Below are positions 3,449 to 51,164 of a stretch of 51,164 nt of DNA, piece by piece. Both the position numbers and the translations under genes were made by a program. This DNA comes from Ruminococcus sp. (lineage in GTDB: Bacteria > Bacillota > Clostridia > Oscillospirales > Ruminococcaceae): the NCBI GenBank assembly GCA_017471405.1, contig JAFUTK010000043.1, positions 1 through 51,164 on the forward strand, written 5' to 3'. Within the stretch, counting starts at the first letter, position 1. Every line of letters starts with the position of its first letter. Under the pieces are notes generated by a model that did no database searches, was not told the DNA's origin, and saw only the letters and a list, made by a program, of their open reading frames with translations.

Positions 3449-4177
3449 TCACTCCAGCTTAAAGCTGTCTATCATCTCAAACATCACATCGCGGTAGGTG
3501 TCCTTTTCGCTCTCGGCGCAGAAGGTGCTTACCTCATACATAGCGTTCTCGGTAAAGTAGGTGCCGATGATAGTCCAGAGCTCGTCACTCTCCTTGATGT
3601 AGTTCTTGTGGGAGGTGGGATATTCCACGAAGATGTAATCCTGCCCTTCCCTTATCTGCGGCACAAGCTCAACTCCATTGACCGTGCGCTTTACGGGAGA
3701 ATCCAGCACCAGCTGCTTAATGTCCTTGTCGCCGTACATCTCCTTCTGGCTGCCGTTGTAGACATTCATAGCGATATACACCGCCACCTTGTCAGAGGTG
3801 AAGAAGCCGATGTTCTCGAAGCTACTGTTCAGCTCCAGCAGCTCGGCCTCCTTCATAGCCTTCGGCAGCGAGATGGAATAGTTGCCCTTCTTCACTGTTT
3901 CCCAGGTCTCGGGCTTTAAGATGTTCTTTTCTGTGATGTACCCCATCAGGAAGAAAACTCCGGCTGCAATGGCTGCCAGCACTATAACTATCACCGGCAG
4001 CAGCTGTGTAAAGGACACGCTTTTTTTCACCTTGACGGAATCCAGCGTCTGGCTCTTGAGCTGATCCTCAAAGGACTGCCCTGCCACAGCCGCATCTGTG
4101 CCATAGGTCAGTGGCCTGCCGCACTCGCAGAAGGTCTTGCCGTCCTCGTTCTCTCTTCCACAAAACTGACATTTCAT
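3449..4177 (-). CDS. Zinc-ribbon, single-pass membrane protein of unknown function
   Basis: 242 residues. The N-terminus is a short zinc ribbon: CQFCGRENEDGKTFCECG, with CxxC at 3-6 and CxC at 18-20. A membrane segment follows at about 60-80 (LLPVIVIVLAAIAAGVFFLMGY), then a ~160-residue extracytoplasmic domain of no recognised family. This layout (cytosolic ribbon, one helix, exterior domain) is common in Firmicutes and usually unannotated. The gene starts 34 bases after the pyk stop on the same strand, with no terminator seen between, so read-through from pyk is likely. Start at 4177 follows GGGGGAGTAAAAA. Confidence 0.85.
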   Translation of the reverse strand: MKCQFCGRENEDGKTFCECGRPLTYGTDAAVAGQSFEDQLKSQTLDSVKVKKSVSFTQLLPVIVIVLAAIAAGVFFLMGYITEKNILKPETWETVKKGNYSISLPKAMKEAELLELNSSFENIGFFTSDKVAVYIAMNVYNGSQKEMYGDKDIKQLVLDSPVKRTVNGVELVPQIREGQDYIFVEYPTSHKNYIKESDELWTIIGTYFTENAMYEVSTFCAESEKDTYRDVMFEMIDSFKLE

Positions 4178-9830: not shown

Positions 9831-10495
9831 TTGAGATACGCCTCCAGTCGGTAGATGGGGAAGCCCTGCTCGGAAAATCTCTGCTCATACTCGGTGACGA
9901 TGTTATCCTCAAAATCGGAGGCGTGGAGGTCGAGGGAGATGTTCTTCATCGTCCAGCCGTACTGCGAGAACTCCTCCAGTGAGAACTCGAAAAAGCCCCT
10001 GTTATCGGTCTTTTGATGTATCTCGGCGCCGGGTTTCAGCAGCATCTTGTAAATATCAAGGAAGCGGTGATGCGTCAGCCTGTGAGAGGCATAGGATTTC
10101 TTTGGGAAGGGACAGCTGAAATTAAGGTATATCCTCCCGATGCTGTGGGCGGGTATGTAGCTTTCCAGATACTCCGCTCCGCCCCTCAGAAACCTGACGT
10201 TCTTTATCCCCAGCGCTATGGCCTTCTCGGCTGCATCCACGATGACATTGCTGGCCTTTTCTACGGCAAGAAAATTGATATCCGGGCGGCGCTGAGCCAG
10301 CTCGCAGATGAACTGCCCCTTGCCGCAGCCTATTTCCAGCTCCACAGGGTTATCATTACCAAACAGCTCAGCAGCATCGAGGATATTCTCGGTATCCTTG
10401 ATCTGGTAGTTGCGGTCCTCCCTGTCCATATAGATTATCATATCTCCGCAGTCCGCGAGGCGCTCCTCGAGGTGCTTTTTTCTTCTCATTCGCAT
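9827..10495 (-). CDS. trmB: tRNA (guanine-N7-)-methyltransferase with an altered motif
   Basis: 222 residues. The family puts a methyl group from SAM on G46 of tRNA. SAM-binding motif EIGCGKGQF lies near 54-62; also present are NFLAVEK, HQKTDNRGFFEFS and the C-terminal ENIVTEYE-like segment (DNIVTEYEQRF). Where most family members have NFSDPWPKKRH with a conserved Asp, this protein reads NFSCPFPKKSYASHR at about 125-139: the Asp is Cys128 and the Arg-His pair is Ser-Tyr. Length is normal and the frame intact. It may be a lineage variant. It sits between an unknown gene (10533) and a membrane protein gene (4-base overlap). Confidence 0.92.
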   Translation of the reverse strand: MRMRRKKHLEERLADCGDMIIYMDREDRNYQIKDTENILDAAELFGNDNPVELEIGCGKGQFICELAQRRPDINFLAVEKASNVIVDAAEKAIALGIKNVRFLRGGAEYLESYIPAHSIGRIYLNFSCPFPKKSYASHRLTHHRFLDIYKMLLKPGAEIHQKTDNRGFFEFSLEEFSQYGWTMKNISLDLHASDFEDNIVTEYEQRFSEQGFPIYRLEAYLK

Positions 10496-33779: not shown

Positions 33780-35396
33780 ATGATAACAGTTTCCGAGCTT
33801 ACCCTCTCCTTCGGGGGTCAGCTGCTTTTCAAGGACGCCGACTTAAAGTTCACCGCCGGCAACTGCTACGGCATTATCGGTGCCAACGGCGCAGGCAAAT
33901 CCACCTTTCTTAAGATACTCTGCGGAGAGATCGAACCCACCAAGGGTGAGGTAGTCATCGACAAGGGTGTGAGAATGTCGGTGCTGCGGCAGGACCACTT
34001 TGCCTTCGACGAATACAACGTGCTGGACACAGTCATAATGGGCAACAAGCGCCTTTATGACATAATGCAGGAAAAGGACGCCCTCTACGCCAAGGAGGAC
34101 TTCTCCGAGGAGGACGGCGACCGCGCCGGCGAGCTGGAGAGCGAATTTGCCGAGCTCAACGGCTGGGAGGCGGAGTCCGATGCCTCAAAGCTCATTCAGG
34201 GGCTGGGGCTTCCGGAGGATATACTCTACTCCCAGATGGCCTCCCTCTCAGGAAATGAGAAGGTAAAGGTGCTGCTGGCGCAGGCGCTGTTCGGCAACCC
34301 TGACGTTATCCTGCTGGACGAGCCTACCAACCATCTGGACATAGATGCTATCCGCTGGCTGGAGGATTTTCTCTCTGAGTACTTCGGTACGGTGCTGGTG
34401 GTATCTCACGACCGTCACTTCTTAAACAACGTCTGCACACACATAGTCGATATCGACTACACCAAGATAAAGATGTACGTGGGCAACTATGAGTTCTGGT
34501 ACGAGTCCTCACAGCTGATGCAGCGAATGATAAAGCAGCAGAACAAGAAGGCCGAGGAAAAGATAAAGGAGCTGCAGGAGTTTATCCAGCGGTTCTCCGC
34601 CAACAAATCCAAGTCCAAGCAGGCCACCAGCCGCCGCAAGCTGCTGGACAAGCTCACCGTTGAGGAAATGCCCGCGTCCTCGAGAAAGTACCCCTACATC
34701 GGCTTCAATATGGACAGAGAGCCGGGCAAGGAGATACTCAAAGTCGAGGGGCTCAGCAAAACCGTTGACGGCGTGAAGCTGCTGAACAACGTTACCTTCA
34801 CTCTCGCCCGCACCGACAAGGTGGCGTTCATCGGCGAGAGCGAGCAGGCGATAACCGCGCTGTTCGAGATACTTGCCGAGCAGGACGAGGATTTTGAGGG
34901 TTCTATAAAATGGGGCTCCACCACCTCCCGCTCCTACTTCCCGAAGGACAACTCCGCCTTCTTCAACGGCTGCGATATGACCATCGTTGACTGGATAAGG
35001 CAATACTCCACCGGAGAGGTGACAGACACCTTCCTGCGGGGCTTTTTAGGCAAGATGCTTTTCTCGGGAGACGAGATCTACAAGAAGGTAGACGTGCTCT
35101 CGGGAGGCGAAAAGGTTAGATGTATGTTCTCGAGGATGATGCTGTTCGGCTCCAACGTACTGCTGCTGGACAGACCCACCAACCACCTTGACCTTGAGTC
35201 AATAACCGCTGTCAACAACGGCTTGCGGGACTTCAAGGGAGTAGTTCTCTTTGCGTCCCACGACCACGAGATAATGCAGACCGTAGCCAACAAGATAATC
35301 GAGATAACCGAGGACGGCTGCATCTGCCGCGAGGGCACCTATGAGGAATACCTTGACTACCGCAGAGAGCGGGGAATGAAGTCATTTATTGAGTAA
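33780..35396 (+). CDS. ABC-F ATPase with degenerate second nucleotide-binding domain
   Basis: 538 residues from ATG 33780 (TGAGGAG 8 bases upstream). Two ABC domains without membrane segments, joined by a charged linker (KKAEEKIKELQEFIQRFSANKSKSKQ), as in ribosome-acting ABC-F proteins; the start SELTLSFGGQLLFKD and RQDHFAFDEYNVLDTVIMG resemble the YbiT/YkpA branch. Domain 1 has GANGAGKST and LLLDEPTNHLD. Domain 2 lacks the Walker A Lys (AFIGESEQAITALF near 350) and its Walker B Glu is Arg (LLLDRPTNHLD near 460). Signature 1 reads LSGNEK. It likely acts on stalled ribosomes; a resistance role cannot be claimed. The GHL10 gene follows 37 bases later. Confidence 0.9.
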   Translation: MITVSELTLSFGGQLLFKDADLKFTAGNCYGIIGANGAGKSTFLKILCGEIEPTKGEVVIDKGVRMSVLRQDHFAFDEYNVLDTVIMGNKRLYDIMQEKDALYAKEDFSEEDGDRAGELESEFAELNGWEAESDASKLIQGLGLPEDILYSQMASLSGNEKVKVLLAQALFGNPDVILLDEPTNHLDIDAIRWLEDFLSEYFGTVLVVSHDRHFLNNVCTHIVDIDYTKIKMYVGNYEFWYESSQLMQRMIKQQNKKAEEKIKELQEFIQRFSANKSKSKQATSRRKLLDKLTVEEMPASSRKYPYIGFNMDREPGKEILKVEGLSKTVDGVKLLNNVTFTLARTDKVAFIGESEQAITALFEILAEQDEDFEGSIKWGSTTSRSYFPKDNSAFFNGCDMTIVDWIRQYSTGEVTDTFLRGFLGKMLFSGDEIYKKVDVLSGGEKVRCMFSRMMLFGSNVLLLDRPTNHLDLESITAVNNGLRDFKGVVLFASHDHEIMQTVANKIIEITEDGCICREGTYEEYLDYRRERGMKSFIE

Positions 35397-48499: not shown

Positions 48500-48538
48500 A
48501 TAAACCACCTCGGTTTTTTGGAGAATTTTGATAATTAA

Positions 48539-48589
48539 ATTATACATCATTTATGTAGTATTGACAAACAGCATAGATGATGTTATAAT
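48539..48589. promoter_or_regulatory. Back-to-back promoters with overlapping -35 boxes and operator-like repeats
   Basis: Plus strand TTGACA (48561-48566), 17 bp, TATAAT (48584-48589). Minus strand TTGTCA (48567-48562), 17 bp, TATAAT (48544-48539). ACATCATTTATG (48544-48555) and CATAGATGATGT (48572-48583) are inverted copies with one mismatch, each filling part of one spacer. Confidence 0.8.
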
Positions 48590-48638
48590 GTATTATACAA
48601 CAATATTGCTGTTTTATACAAAACAAGGAGGAAAAAAT

Positions 48639-50129
48639 ATGATAAAAAAATATGTAACAGCGGCGCTGGCGGTGCTGCTTGTGTTTGGCGCATCAGCAGC
48701 GGCGCTGCCCGCAAGCGAGAAAAATGCGGGTGGGGTGCTGACTGCGAGTGCGGAGGATTGGCCGACTCCGAGTTGGGATATACCGAAATATCAGAGCGGT
48801 GATTACGAATATACTTTGCTTGATGACGGGACTGCGGAAATAGTTAAATATACCGGCAGTGAAAAAGATGTGACTATTCCAAGTGAGCTTGATGGATTTA
48901 AAGTTACAAGCATTAAAGGAGCATTAATCTATCGGAGTGCATTTTCCTCAAATCCTTATATTATAAATGTAACAATCCCCGATAGTGTAAAATGTATAGG
49001 ATACCGTGCATTTAAAGAATCTAGAATTCTTGAAAGCATAATTATTCCCAACAGTGTTACAAGCATTGGAACCGATGCATTTTCGGAATGTAAAAGTCTT
49101 GAAAGCATAACAATTCCCGACAGCGTTACAAGCATTGAAAAATTTGCATTTGCCTATAGTGGTCTGAAAAATATAATATTAACTAACGGTATTACCAAGA
49201 TAGAAGATGGTACTTTCGAGGGATGCGCTTTTAAAGAAATAGTGATACCTAATAATGTTACAAGTATTGGAGAGAGCGCATTTAATGACTGCAAAAATCT
49301 TGAAAGCTTAGTAATACCTAATAATGTTACAAGTATCGAAGGAATTGCATTTTATGAATGCACAAATCTTAAAAACGTAACAATACCTAAATCTGTAAAA
49401 GAAATAAAAGAACGTTCTTTCGGCTATTGTTTTGATTATGATAATGACACACCGGGTCAAGTTGACGGTTTCACCATCTACTGCTACAAAGGCACTGCCG
49501 CCGAGCAATACGCCATCGACAACGGCTTTGACTACGTTCTGCTGGACGAAGAGGAGCCTGTAAGCCTTACCGATACCGCAACGGGCGTTAAGGTCGAGGC
49601 AGAGGCGGGAGTTGTTCCCGAGGACGCTAAGCTGATCGTTGAGCCGATAACCTCGGGCGAAGGATACGACAAAGCGGCTAAGGCGCTCGGCGAGGTCAAG
49701 GCGTTCAGACTGTTTGAGATACACCTCGAAAACGCGCAGGGCGAAGAGATAAAGCCCGACGGAAATGTAACAGTCAGCATTCCAATTCCTGAGGAATTCG
49801 GCGCTGACCTCGCAGTCTACCGCATAAATGACGACGACACAGCCACGAAAATGGAAGGCTCTGCAAAGGACGGAGTATTCACCTACTTAAGCGACAGTTT
49901 CAGCAATTACGCTTTGGCAGAGGCTAAACAAAACGAAGGTGAAAACAACTCCGATACAGGATCCTCAAATAACACAGAGGCAAATACAGATACCAACGAG
50001 ACAAAACCCGGCACGACCGACAGTCAGGGCGATACGACCACAAATCCCCAGACCGGCGCGGCGGCAACGGGAGCGGGCGTGCTGCTCGCGGCTGCAATTG
50101 CTATCGCAGCTAAGAAAAGAAACAAATAA
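48639..50129 (+). CDS. Cell-surface BspA-type leucine-rich repeat protein with NPQTG sorting signal
   Basis: 496 residues from ATG 48639 (AAGGAGG 7 bases upstream). Signal peptide to about 38, then about eight LRR_5/BspA repeats of ~23 residues at about 100-265 (type IPNSVTSIGTDAFSECKSLESI), then a non-repeat region and a Thr/Asn/Asp-rich linker. The C-terminus is a sorting signal: NPQTGAAATG, hydrophobic helix, KKRNK. The motif suggests a sortase B/E-like rather than classic LPXTG enzyme. The repeat part is AT-rich with codons (AAT, ATT, ACA) unlike both ends of the gene. Such proteins mediate adhesion in other bacteria; the target here is unknown. Confidence 0.92.
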   Translation: MIKKYVTAALAVLLVFGASAAALPASEKNAGGVLTASAEDWPTPSWDIPKYQSGDYEYTLLDDGTAEIVKYTGSEKDVTIPSELDGFKVTSIKGALIYRSAFSSNPYIINVTIPDSVKCIGYRAFKESRILESIIIPNSVTSIGTDAFSECKSLESITIPDSVTSIEKFAFAYSGLKNIILTNGITKIEDGTFEGCAFKEIVIPNNVTSIGESAFNDCKNLESLVIPNNVTSIEGIAFYECTNLKNVTIPKSVKEIKERSFGYCFDYDNDTPGQVDGFTIYCYKGTAAEQYAIDNGFDYVLLDEEEPVSLTDTATGVKVEAEAGVVPEDAKLIVEPITSGEGYDKAAKALGEVKAFRLFEIHLENAQGEEIKPDGNVTVSIPIPEEFGADLAVYRINDDDTATKMEGSAKDGVFTYLSDSFSNYALAEAKQNEGENNSDTGSSNNTEANTDTNETKPGTTDSQGDTTTNPQTGAAATGAGVLLAAAIAIAAKKRNK

Positions 50130-50170: not shown

Positions 50171-51164
50171 CTAATTCTCTATCTGCTTGCCCAAAAACAT
50201 CGCTGCCGCTTTGGCTAGCATAATATTCTTCTCGTCTGCCTTGGGGTCATTGTTGGGGTCGATGAGTGCCACCGCGCCTATCACATCTCCCGAGGAGATT
50301 ATAGGCACCGCCGCCAGTGCCGGCTTGTCCAGCCCCTCAATGGGAAAGAGCCGAGGCGTCCCCGCCTTGTCGTAGGCGTAGGACTTGCGCTGCTCGATGA
50401 GCTCCTCCAGCGCCGGAGAGAGCCGCCTCTCGGCATACTCTGTCTTTCTCGCCCCGGACACCGCCACGACGTGGTCCCGGTCAAAGACTATGGCTGCGTT
50501 ACCGGTCAGCTTAGCAATGACCTCCGCCGCCTGTGAGGTTCCGCTGTCCAGCTCCCCCACCGGCGAATATTTCTTGAACACAACCTCCCCGTCACTGCTG
50601 GTGTATATTTCAAGCGGGTCGCCGCCACTGATAGTATTGACACTAAGCTCATCACCTTTTGAATTGCGTATTTTGGCGATGTGTGACGCTATTGACAGCT
50701 TAGTGCCTTGCTTAAAATTTACAACATTTCCCTCCGTATCTGTGACATAAGGCTCGCTTGTTATCTTTAGCAGCTCGTCGATGTCGGCTTTGAGATAGAC
50801 CTCGATCTTATCGGTAAAAATAAATATCTTGTCTATGATAAGCCCGATATCCTGCTTTGAGAGTCTTTCTTTGCTCAGAATATTGTCAAAGACCTCAAAG
50901 ACTGTTTTTGCGGCTCTGTTCACCTGGATCACCGCATTGTGCTTGTCAGCCGAGAGCTTCATCTGATTCTTTAGCCCCTCAATGCGGATAGTCAGATCAT
51001 CTATCTGCTCATCATAAGCCTCCTCGAGAATATCGGCTCTGTCGGGGTGCTTCATCAGGTCACGGGTCTTCTGACGGGTGAGCATTTTGATCTCAGCCTT
51101 AGCGTCTTCTATCTGAGATTCAATCGTTTCAATTACGTTTTTGCTCGCCTTAGTTTCCTCCTGC
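50171..51164 (-). CDS. Serine recombinase C-terminus fused in frame to SpoVT residues ~31 to end (5' end outside window)
   Basis: The frame is open to the window edge; at least 330 residues. The first ~130 visible residues (ETIESQIEDAKAEIKMLTRQK, EEAYDEQIDDLTIRIEGLKNQM, KQDIGLIIDKIFIFTDKIEVYLKADIDELLK) are a charged coiled-coil and end segment typical of large serine recombinases. From GDPLEIYTSSDGEVVFKKYSP (split here: GDPLEIYTSS, DGEVVFKKYSP) to the end (PIISSGDVIGAVALI, AKAAAMFLGKQIE) it is SpoVT: the second half of the AbrB DNA-binding hairpin plus the whole GAF domain, about 149 residues, as expected for residue 31 onward of a ~178-residue SpoVT. The normal SpoVT N-terminus (GIVRRIDDLGRVVIPKEIR) is absent. 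It looks like an element integrated into spoVT. Confidence 0.85.
   Translation of the reverse strand, partial: QEETKASKNVIETIESQIEDAKAEIKMLTRQKTRDLMKHPDRADILEEAYDEQIDDLTIRIEGLKNQMKLSADKHNAVIQVNRAAKTVFEVFDNILSKERLSKQDIGLIIDKIFIFTDKIEVYLKADIDELLKITSEPYVTDTEGNVVNFKQGTKLSIASHIAKIRNSKGDELSVNTISGGDPLEIYTSSDGEVVFKKYSPVGELDSGTSQAAEVIAKLTGNAAIVFDRDHVVAVSGARKTEYAERRLSPALEELIEQRKSYAYDKAGTPRLFPIEGLDKPALAAVPIISSGDVIGAVALIDPNNDPKADEKNIMLAKAAAMFLGKQIEN

What the first reader, a model, noticed from the sequence alone, without database searches (positions are those of the whole stretch)
50171..51164. Large serine recombinase fused in frame to the C-terminal 5/6 of SpoVT: probable edge of an element integrated in spoVT
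Seen: one open frame joins a serine recombinase C-terminal segment to SpoVT starting at GDPLEIYTSS, with the first ~30 SpoVT residues missing. Known: SpoVT is an AbrB-type regulator whose N-terminal hairpin binds DNA and whose GAF domain follows; sporulation genes are recurrent targets of excisable elements (skin in sigK, SPbeta in spsM). Inference: an integrase placed the element inside spoVT codon ~31, near 50602-50637, and its own gene now reads into the host gene, giving a recombinase that carries a GAF tail until excision restores spoVT. That would couple the recombinase to a host signal domain.
Basis: partly seen in the sequence, partly recalled or inferred. Interest (0 to 1): 0.78.

Follow-up and report, generated by a model that had tools for sequence, protein, structure and literature searches.

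The report
Mobile elements that split spoVT
A family of mobile DNA elements in gut clostridia inserts itself into the sporulation gene spoVT at one fixed codon, and because its insertion site lies inside its own enzyme gene, the inserting enzyme and the host protein swap their tails, so the enzyme carries a host sensor domain for as long as the element stays inserted.

Summary
The window is a whole contig that ends inside a large serine recombinase gene fused in frame to SpoVT residues 31-180. In nine related genomes, two of them single-contig, one contig holds the missing spoVT 5' part, an 11-46 kb element and the fusion; joining the flanks at the shared core restores a 178-181 aa SpoVT. At least 27 of 396 family genomes carry such an element, and 27 of 29 recombinase loci inspected from other families of the order run into SpoVT. 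Recombinase and SpoVT-tail identities hardly correlate (Spearman 0.08), so the fusion is remade at each insertion; it is not an old gene fusion. The element's other end encodes the recombinase's own C-terminal tail, which integration attaches to the SpoVT N-terminus: a reciprocal, in-frame tail swap. Cargo includes relaxase and defence genes in the elements sampled. Not shown: excision, sporulation timing, or any effect of the GAF tail. No attP-joined form turned up in 396 genomes (the pattern covers 8 of 10 inferred sites), and the window's own genome (64% complete) lacks the other half. Closest known: the gin, skin and SPbeta gene-intervening elements.

The parts
50171..51163 (-). fused open frame: recombinase C-terminal 180 aa + SpoVT residues 31-180, open at the contig end
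50624..51164 (-). element side: C-terminal part of a large serine recombinase (the rest lies beyond the contig end)
   Evidence: aligned to full-length relatives L012, L013, L014; G+C 44%
50171..50623 (-). host side: spoVT 3' part, codon 31 to stop, carrying the GAF-type SpoVT_C domain
   Evidence: homology to intact spoVT of relatives stops at 50623
50616..50623 (-). crossover core GGCGACCC (GGNGAYCC in most relatives); inferred central dinucleotide GA at 50620-50619
50595..50644 (-). inferred attR: recombinase-side attP arm (50621-50644), GA, then spoVT-side attB arm (50618-50595)
   Evidence: position inferred from comparison with relatives

Best explanation
The window ends at one edge (attR) of a mobile element inserted in spoVT at Gly31-Asp32 by its own large serine recombinase. 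Its attP lies inside the recombinase gene, about 18-34 codons before its own stop. Crossing over at the GA of GGC-GA-CCC, in the same reading frame in both genes, exchanges 3' ends: the recombinase gains SpoVT residues 31-180 (sensor domain) and the SpoVT DNA-binding N-terminus gains the recombinase's own short tail. Shown in relatives: both ends, the core, the in-frame reading on both sides, restoration of spoVT when the flanks are joined in silico, repeated independent insertion, and selection on the recombinase. Inferred: the same layout beyond 51164 here; the attP-joined circle; excision by attL x attR recombination, probably with a directionality factor, that restores spoVT.
For: G017: spoVT starts at C1:1737, core at 1827, second core and fusion at 34646, element 32,819 bp; the joined flanks give a 180-aa SpoVT. 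Likewise on single contigs G222 19,396 bp, G087 20,708, G314 14,050, G151 13,289, G387 11,354, G196 15,027, G704 15,604 and G340 46,110, restoring 178-181 aa. G222 and G704 are single-contig genomes. G006 and G009 give 180 and 179 aa from two contigs each. Inferred attP arms are near-palindromic (16-21 of 24 positions in ten genomes), attB arms less so (8-11 of 24). Left-end tails: 23 listed, differences at codon positions 1/2/3 = 34/27/69 over ten overlapping pairs. 49 near-full fusions (1,176 pairs): Spearman 0.08 between recombinase and SpoVT-tail identity; G387/G151 95.3% against 58.1%, G373/G151 60.1% against 89.4%; recombinase dN/dS 0.03-0.11 in the 14 closest pairs.
Against: The window's assembly holds neither the spoVT 5' part nor the recombinase N-terminal part. 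No attP-joined form was found in 396 genomes (the pattern would have caught 8 of the 10 inferred sites); 3 pattern hits in viral contigs were chance. So excision has no direct support. No directionality factor was looked for or identified. Two elements (G001, of which one end is seen, and G174) sit in inverted orientation, which a GA dinucleotide should disfavour. The G282 left core is mutated (GGCGCCCC) and the join there gives 184 aa.
Confidence: 0.9

Rival explanations
1. Developmental switch: like gin, skin and SPbeta, the element is excised when the cell sporulates, and this restores spoVT on time.
For: The target is a sporulation regulator. SpoIVA is present in 48 of 49 genomes searched; 44 of these 48 carry, or in the case of G227 may carry, an element. 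In the window's genus fused SpoVT tails show no decay: median dN/dS 0.048 for nine fused-intact pairs against 0.041 for seven intact pairs. Precedents: gin in gerE and SPbeta in spsM (passages read).
Against: SpoIVA is about as common in the family at large (261 of 283 genomes at least 90% complete), so no enrichment is claimed. No excised form was seen. In B. subtilis SpoVT acts in the forespore (recalled), whereas the precedents act in the mother cell, where losing the element costs nothing. G413 has an intact second spoVT. Between distant carriers the SpoVT tails have higher dN/dS than the recombinases (0.04-0.79 over 13 of the 14 closest pairs, dS often saturated).
Confidence: 0.4
2. Parasitic safe harbour: spoVT is just a conserved landing site (Gly-Asp-Pro codons), the fusion is an inert by-product, and carriers live with a broken spoVT.
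For: The recombinase of G519 is fused in frame to a different gene (EGD-RAEIRNG...), so a SpoVT tail is not obligatory. In the inverted cases G001 and G174 the recombinase reads into antisense spoVT. Cargo scanned is partly of the defence type.
Against: Both halves of spoVT are open and restore a full frame in the nine single-contig carriers; G282 has a mutated left core. In the genus the tails show no decay. The recombinase stays under strong selection.
Confidence: 0.4
3. An old, vertically inherited gene fusion with no element.
For: The fusion occurs across ten families of the order.
Against: The two halves have unrelated histories; same-genus genomes have intact spoVT; in nine genomes the 5' part lies 11-46 kb away on the same contig.
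Confidence: 0.01

Closest known systems
gin element in gerE, Bacillus cereus ATCC10987 (PMC5595907; 12 of 25 matching passages read)
   Same: non-phage element (28.6 kb) with serine recombinase genes and restriction-modification cargo that splits a small sporulation regulator gene, with a short shared core
   Different: target gerE, not spoVT; three recombinases; the passages I saw do not mention a recombinase fused to the host gene ('in-frame' and 'spoVT' occur 0 times, 'fus' 4 times); excision during sporulation is shown there and not here
SPbeta prophage in spsM (PMC4191935; 12 of 87 matching passages read) and skin in sigK (named in the same passages, otherwise recalled)
   Same: sporulation gene split by an element with a large serine recombinase
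   Different: prophages; excision in the mother cell with the SprB factor is shown; here relaxase and defence genes, and no virion family among the 20 element proteins given to Pfam
Integrative and mobilizable elements with serine integrases (PMC5704250; search listing and start of abstract only)
   Same: relaxase PF03432 in three elements, G314, G196 and (partial) G087
   Different: attP inside the integrase gene with reciprocal tail exchange; transfer not tested
Engineered integrase-RDF fusions (PMC5737554; 12 of 57 matching passages read)
   Same: a domain attached to the C-terminus of a serine integrase; there it favours attL x attR and lowers attP x attB
   Different: man-made, and the added domain is the integrase's own directionality factor, not a GAF sensor
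Integration-dependent immunity of some temperate phages, where integration changes the C-terminus of a phage protein (recalled; only listed papers)
   Same: attP inside a coding gene, so integration alters its product
   Different: recalled case concerns a repressor and tyrosine integrases; here the recombinase itself and a host regulator exchange tails
SpoVT of B. subtilis, PDB 2w1t (organism recalled)
   Same: window residues 178-329 match its residues 28-177
   Different: DNA-binding N-terminus replaced by a recombinase

Membership tests
Large serine recombinase | Resolvase + Recombinase + zinc-ribbon domains | tested here: met
   met in four of four full-length relatives; in the window itself only the C-terminal part is present and no domain is called
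Large serine recombinase | palindromic attP, less palindromic attB, shared central dinucleotide | tested here: met
   inferred sites in eleven genomes, one row discarded for wrong register (G130); GA on both sides in nine of the other ten, GC on the left in G282. No recombination assay
Sporulation gene-intervening element | splits a sporulation gene so that precise excision restores it | tested here: met
   in silico in 12 genomes: G017, G009, G006, G174, G222, G087, G314, G151, G387, G196, G704, G340; G282 gives 184 aa with a mutated left core. Not visible in the window's own genome
Sporulation gene-intervening element | excision observed during sporulation | not testable with these tools
   no reads or cultures; 0 of 396 genomes match the joined-attP pattern
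Sporulation gene-intervening element | recombination directionality factor encoded in the element | not tested
   not searched for
Integrative and mobilizable element | relaxase plus integrase | tested here: inconclusive
   relaxase in G314, G196 and (partial) G087; only 20 selected proteins of seven elements were given to Pfam, and the window's own element is not visible
Prophage | virion genes | tested here: inconclusive
   none among 20 element proteins given to Pfam, 15 of which had a match; no element was scanned in full, and PHROGs was not used

The most novel reading that the evidence does not exclude
The recombinase reads out its own integration state through its C-terminus. Free circle: own short helix, competent to integrate. 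Integrated: host SpoVT GAF domain, which blocks or reverses the preference or makes excision depend on the host signal, while the SpoVT N-terminus becomes a small sensorless DNA-binding protein with the element's tail. Integration would thus be a reversible two-gene domain exchange that sets recombination direction and rewires a host regulator in one step.
Probability: 0.2. Interest if true: 0.9.

Novelty: new variant of a known kind. Interest (0 to 1): 0.7.

Why it matters
It adds spoVT to the genes split by recombinase-bearing elements and shows such elements in ten families of one order; 44 of the 45 carriers or possible carriers tested have the spore gene spoIVA. The reciprocal in-frame tail swap gives a natural test of how the C-terminus of serine integrases controls direction, a question approached with engineered fusions in PMC5737554. 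It also supplies dozens of related integrases with one conserved target.

Tried and rejected
Viral contigs: the protein scan found no relative; the attP pattern gave three hits, none in a recombinase. Plasmid records: nothing close (best listed places under 30% identity). Phage records: two fecal virome records at 54% identity, one a SpoVT fusion (MT836658.1), one ending 17 bases before the expected core (MT839487.1). Enrichment of spore formers among carriers: not claimed, base rate about as high. A fixed motif for the native tail: only 9 of 23 matched my pattern, so I rely on the codon-position test; its ten pairs overlap and are not independent. Structure prediction never started, machine busy, so nothing is known here of how the fused GAF domain sits. 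The AbrB-like hit C44:41521-41664 in the own genome looked like a 5' spoVT part but is a separate 81-aa AbrB-type protein. My first expression for the 5' junctions failed and was corrected. Rows dropped: 3 of 52 fusions with recombinase parts of 500 aa or less; G130 missed by the expression and discarded for wrong register; pairs with dS of 0 or less or above 2. Four of the 35 genomes matched (G720, G444, G445, G437) had no locus and were not inspected. My notes say about 220 bases upstream for the extra spoVT 5' copies and about 40 bases for MT839487.1; both are corrected here.

Full report
What is in the window. The window is contig C24 of a 64% complete genome and ends at 51164. On the minus strand one frame of 330 codons runs in from the contig end and stops at 50171. 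Its last 150 residues are SpoVT residues 31-180. Its first 180 are the C-terminal part of a serine recombinase, known from alignment with relatives, since Pfam finds no recombinase domain in this part. Full-length relatives have the Resolvase, Recombinase and Zn_ribbon_recom domains followed by SpoVT_C in one frame: G006 748 aa, G009 727 aa, G017 700 aa. DNA homology with six intact spoVT genes stops at 50623, the first base of the Gly31 codon; with three fused relatives it continues 21-24 bases more.

The element. In G017, spoVT starts at C1:1737, meets the core GGCGACCC at 1827, and the core recurs at 34646 where the fusion starts; joining them gives a 180-aa SpoVT. The same holds on single contigs for G222, G087, G314, G151, G387, G196, G704 and G340 (ends 46,110 bp apart; join 180 aa). 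The core varies slightly: GGNGAYCC in most, GCTGACCC on the G196 right side. G222 and G704 are single-contig genomes, and G222 has no other spoVT start among its hits; its remaining hit is an AbrB-type protein at 60%. In G282 the left core is mutated (GGCGCCCC) and the join gives 184 aa. In the window's own genome no spoVT start was found and no other part of this recombinase, so the other end is inferred.

How common. Of 396 genomes of the family, 328 matched the 330-aa query; 26 had a frame joining this recombinase to SpoVT (counting G000, G111 and G413, whose frames are cut by contig ends), and G174 has the two halves in inverted arrangement, making 27. The list of weaker matches was cut, so this is a lower bound. 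Among 394 genomes of the order, 35 matched the recombinase tail alone. I inspected the 29 loci given from other families: 27, from nine families, run into SpoVT, and two (G578, G519) do not; four further matches had no locus. G519 runs in frame into another protein at a similar Gly-Asp site. Named records: Ruminococcus sp. RGIG3787 carries a fusion; CAMNBY010000322.1 and CAMOFU010000198.1 have the length and match of G001:C322 and G008:C198.

Not an old fusion. Over 49 fusions with a near-complete recombinase, the identity of the recombinase parts hardly follows that of the SpoVT parts (1,176 pairs, Spearman 0.08). G387 and G151 share 95.3% in the recombinase and 58.1% in SpoVT; G373 and G151 share 60.1% and 89.4%. 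The SpoVT part is the host's own each time; I infer repeated insertion.

The tail swap. The spoVT 5' part does not stop at the core; it reads on into the element's left end for 18-34 codons in 23 tails, one of them frameshifted (G367 first copy). Differences between related pairs fall at codon positions 1, 2, 3 as 34, 27, 69, as in translated DNA. Placed after the recombinase, as in a circle, this tail is in frame. So I infer that attP lies inside the recombinase gene and that integration exchanges tails. The codon test alone cannot say in which state the tail is selected, since it is translated in both. The arms around the central GA are near-palindromic in the inferred attP (16-21 of 24 in ten genomes) and less so in attB (8-11 of 24). 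The joined attP was searched for in 396 genomes and not found; the pattern matches 8 of the 10 inferred sites within the allowed mismatch.

Orientation. In G001 and G174 the recombinase end abuts the spoVT 5' part head to head. In G174 the spoVT 3' part lies at the other end and the joined flanks give 180 aa; in G001 the other end was not seen. G001 shows TC and G174 GA at the centre, which would fit a mismatched GA-GA joint resolved either way; this is inference.

Cargo. Only selected proteins of seven elements were scanned, 20 against PADLOC and 20 against Pfam, with overlap. G314: type I restriction-modification, a GmrSD-type enzyme, a relaxase; G174: type I-C Cas3, Cas8c, Cas7; G151: a Cas2e-DEDDh protein and a Mutator transposase; G196: relaxase; G087: part of a relaxase and a reverse transcriptase; the four G222 proteins and the one G282 protein given to PADLOC had no match. 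G017 open frames look like type I restriction-modification with several specificity genes and a tyrosine recombinase (my reading, no family search).

Host side. SpoIVA is present in 48 of 49 genomes searched, all but the incomplete G000, but also in 261 of 283 good genomes of the family, so carriers look like spore formers by gene content but no enrichment is claimed. In the window's genus fused SpoVT tails are about as constrained as intact ones: median dN/dS 0.048 for nine fused-intact pairs, 0.041 for seven intact pairs, 0.068 for three fused pairs. Between more distant carriers the SpoVT tails evolve faster than the recombinases (0.04-0.79 against 0.03-0.11, with dS often saturated and one pair not computable). 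This fits recent insertion, or regular restoration, or a function of the tail; it does not separate them.

Literature. No paper in the library holds both spoVT and 'serine recombinase'. Further searches listed nothing that by title and start of abstract reports elements in spoVT or a state-dependent integrase tail; only 10 of 14, 23 and 19 papers were listed, and subscription papers are missing from the library. Of three papers I saw passages, of the rest listings. Closest is gin (PMC5595907). Engineered integrase-RDF fusions (PMC5737554) show that a domain on the C-terminus can change direction, which makes the novel case testable.

Verdict. A real, widespread family of spoVT-splitting elements, new to me and to these searches in its target and in the reciprocal tail exchange, like known gene-intervening elements in kind. 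Excision and the role of the GAF tail remain open.

Noticed in passing
G130:C12 (4435, 11961, remnants 13904 and 17855), G367:C25 (5899, 26505), G282 (C37, C46, C95), G333 (C210, C65, C116): Extra copies of the spoVT 5' part; in G130, G367 and G282 with about 100-310 bases of similar upstream DNA and each running into an element left end: traces of repeated or tandem insertions, origin unexplained.
   Followed up: partly
L064 (G001:C322) and L196 (G174:C11): Elements in inverted orientation in spoVT, despite a non-palindromic central GA. G227 (C25, C30) may be a further case, not followed.
   Followed up: partly
L237 (G519:C157) near 3987-4050: Same kind of recombinase fused in frame to a different gene at a Gly-Asp site: possibly a second natural target.
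   Followed up: partly
L238 (G578:C9) near 10402: Recombinase tail that meets neither SpoVT nor a partner I recognise.
   Followed up: no
L065 (G008:C198 start), L232 (MT839487.1 end): Two contigs start 59 bases or end 17 bases before the core, which could reflect a mix of integrated and excised DNA or just repeats.
   Followed up: no
G413: C9:99806 and C6:4850: One genome with an intact spoVT start in a 252-codon frame and a second, fused one.
   Followed up: no
window 48528-50129 +: Repeat-rich surface-type protein (leucine-rich repeats by eye, no family search) convergent with spoVT; G002 also has a long open frame convergent with spoVT at this place.
   Followed up: no
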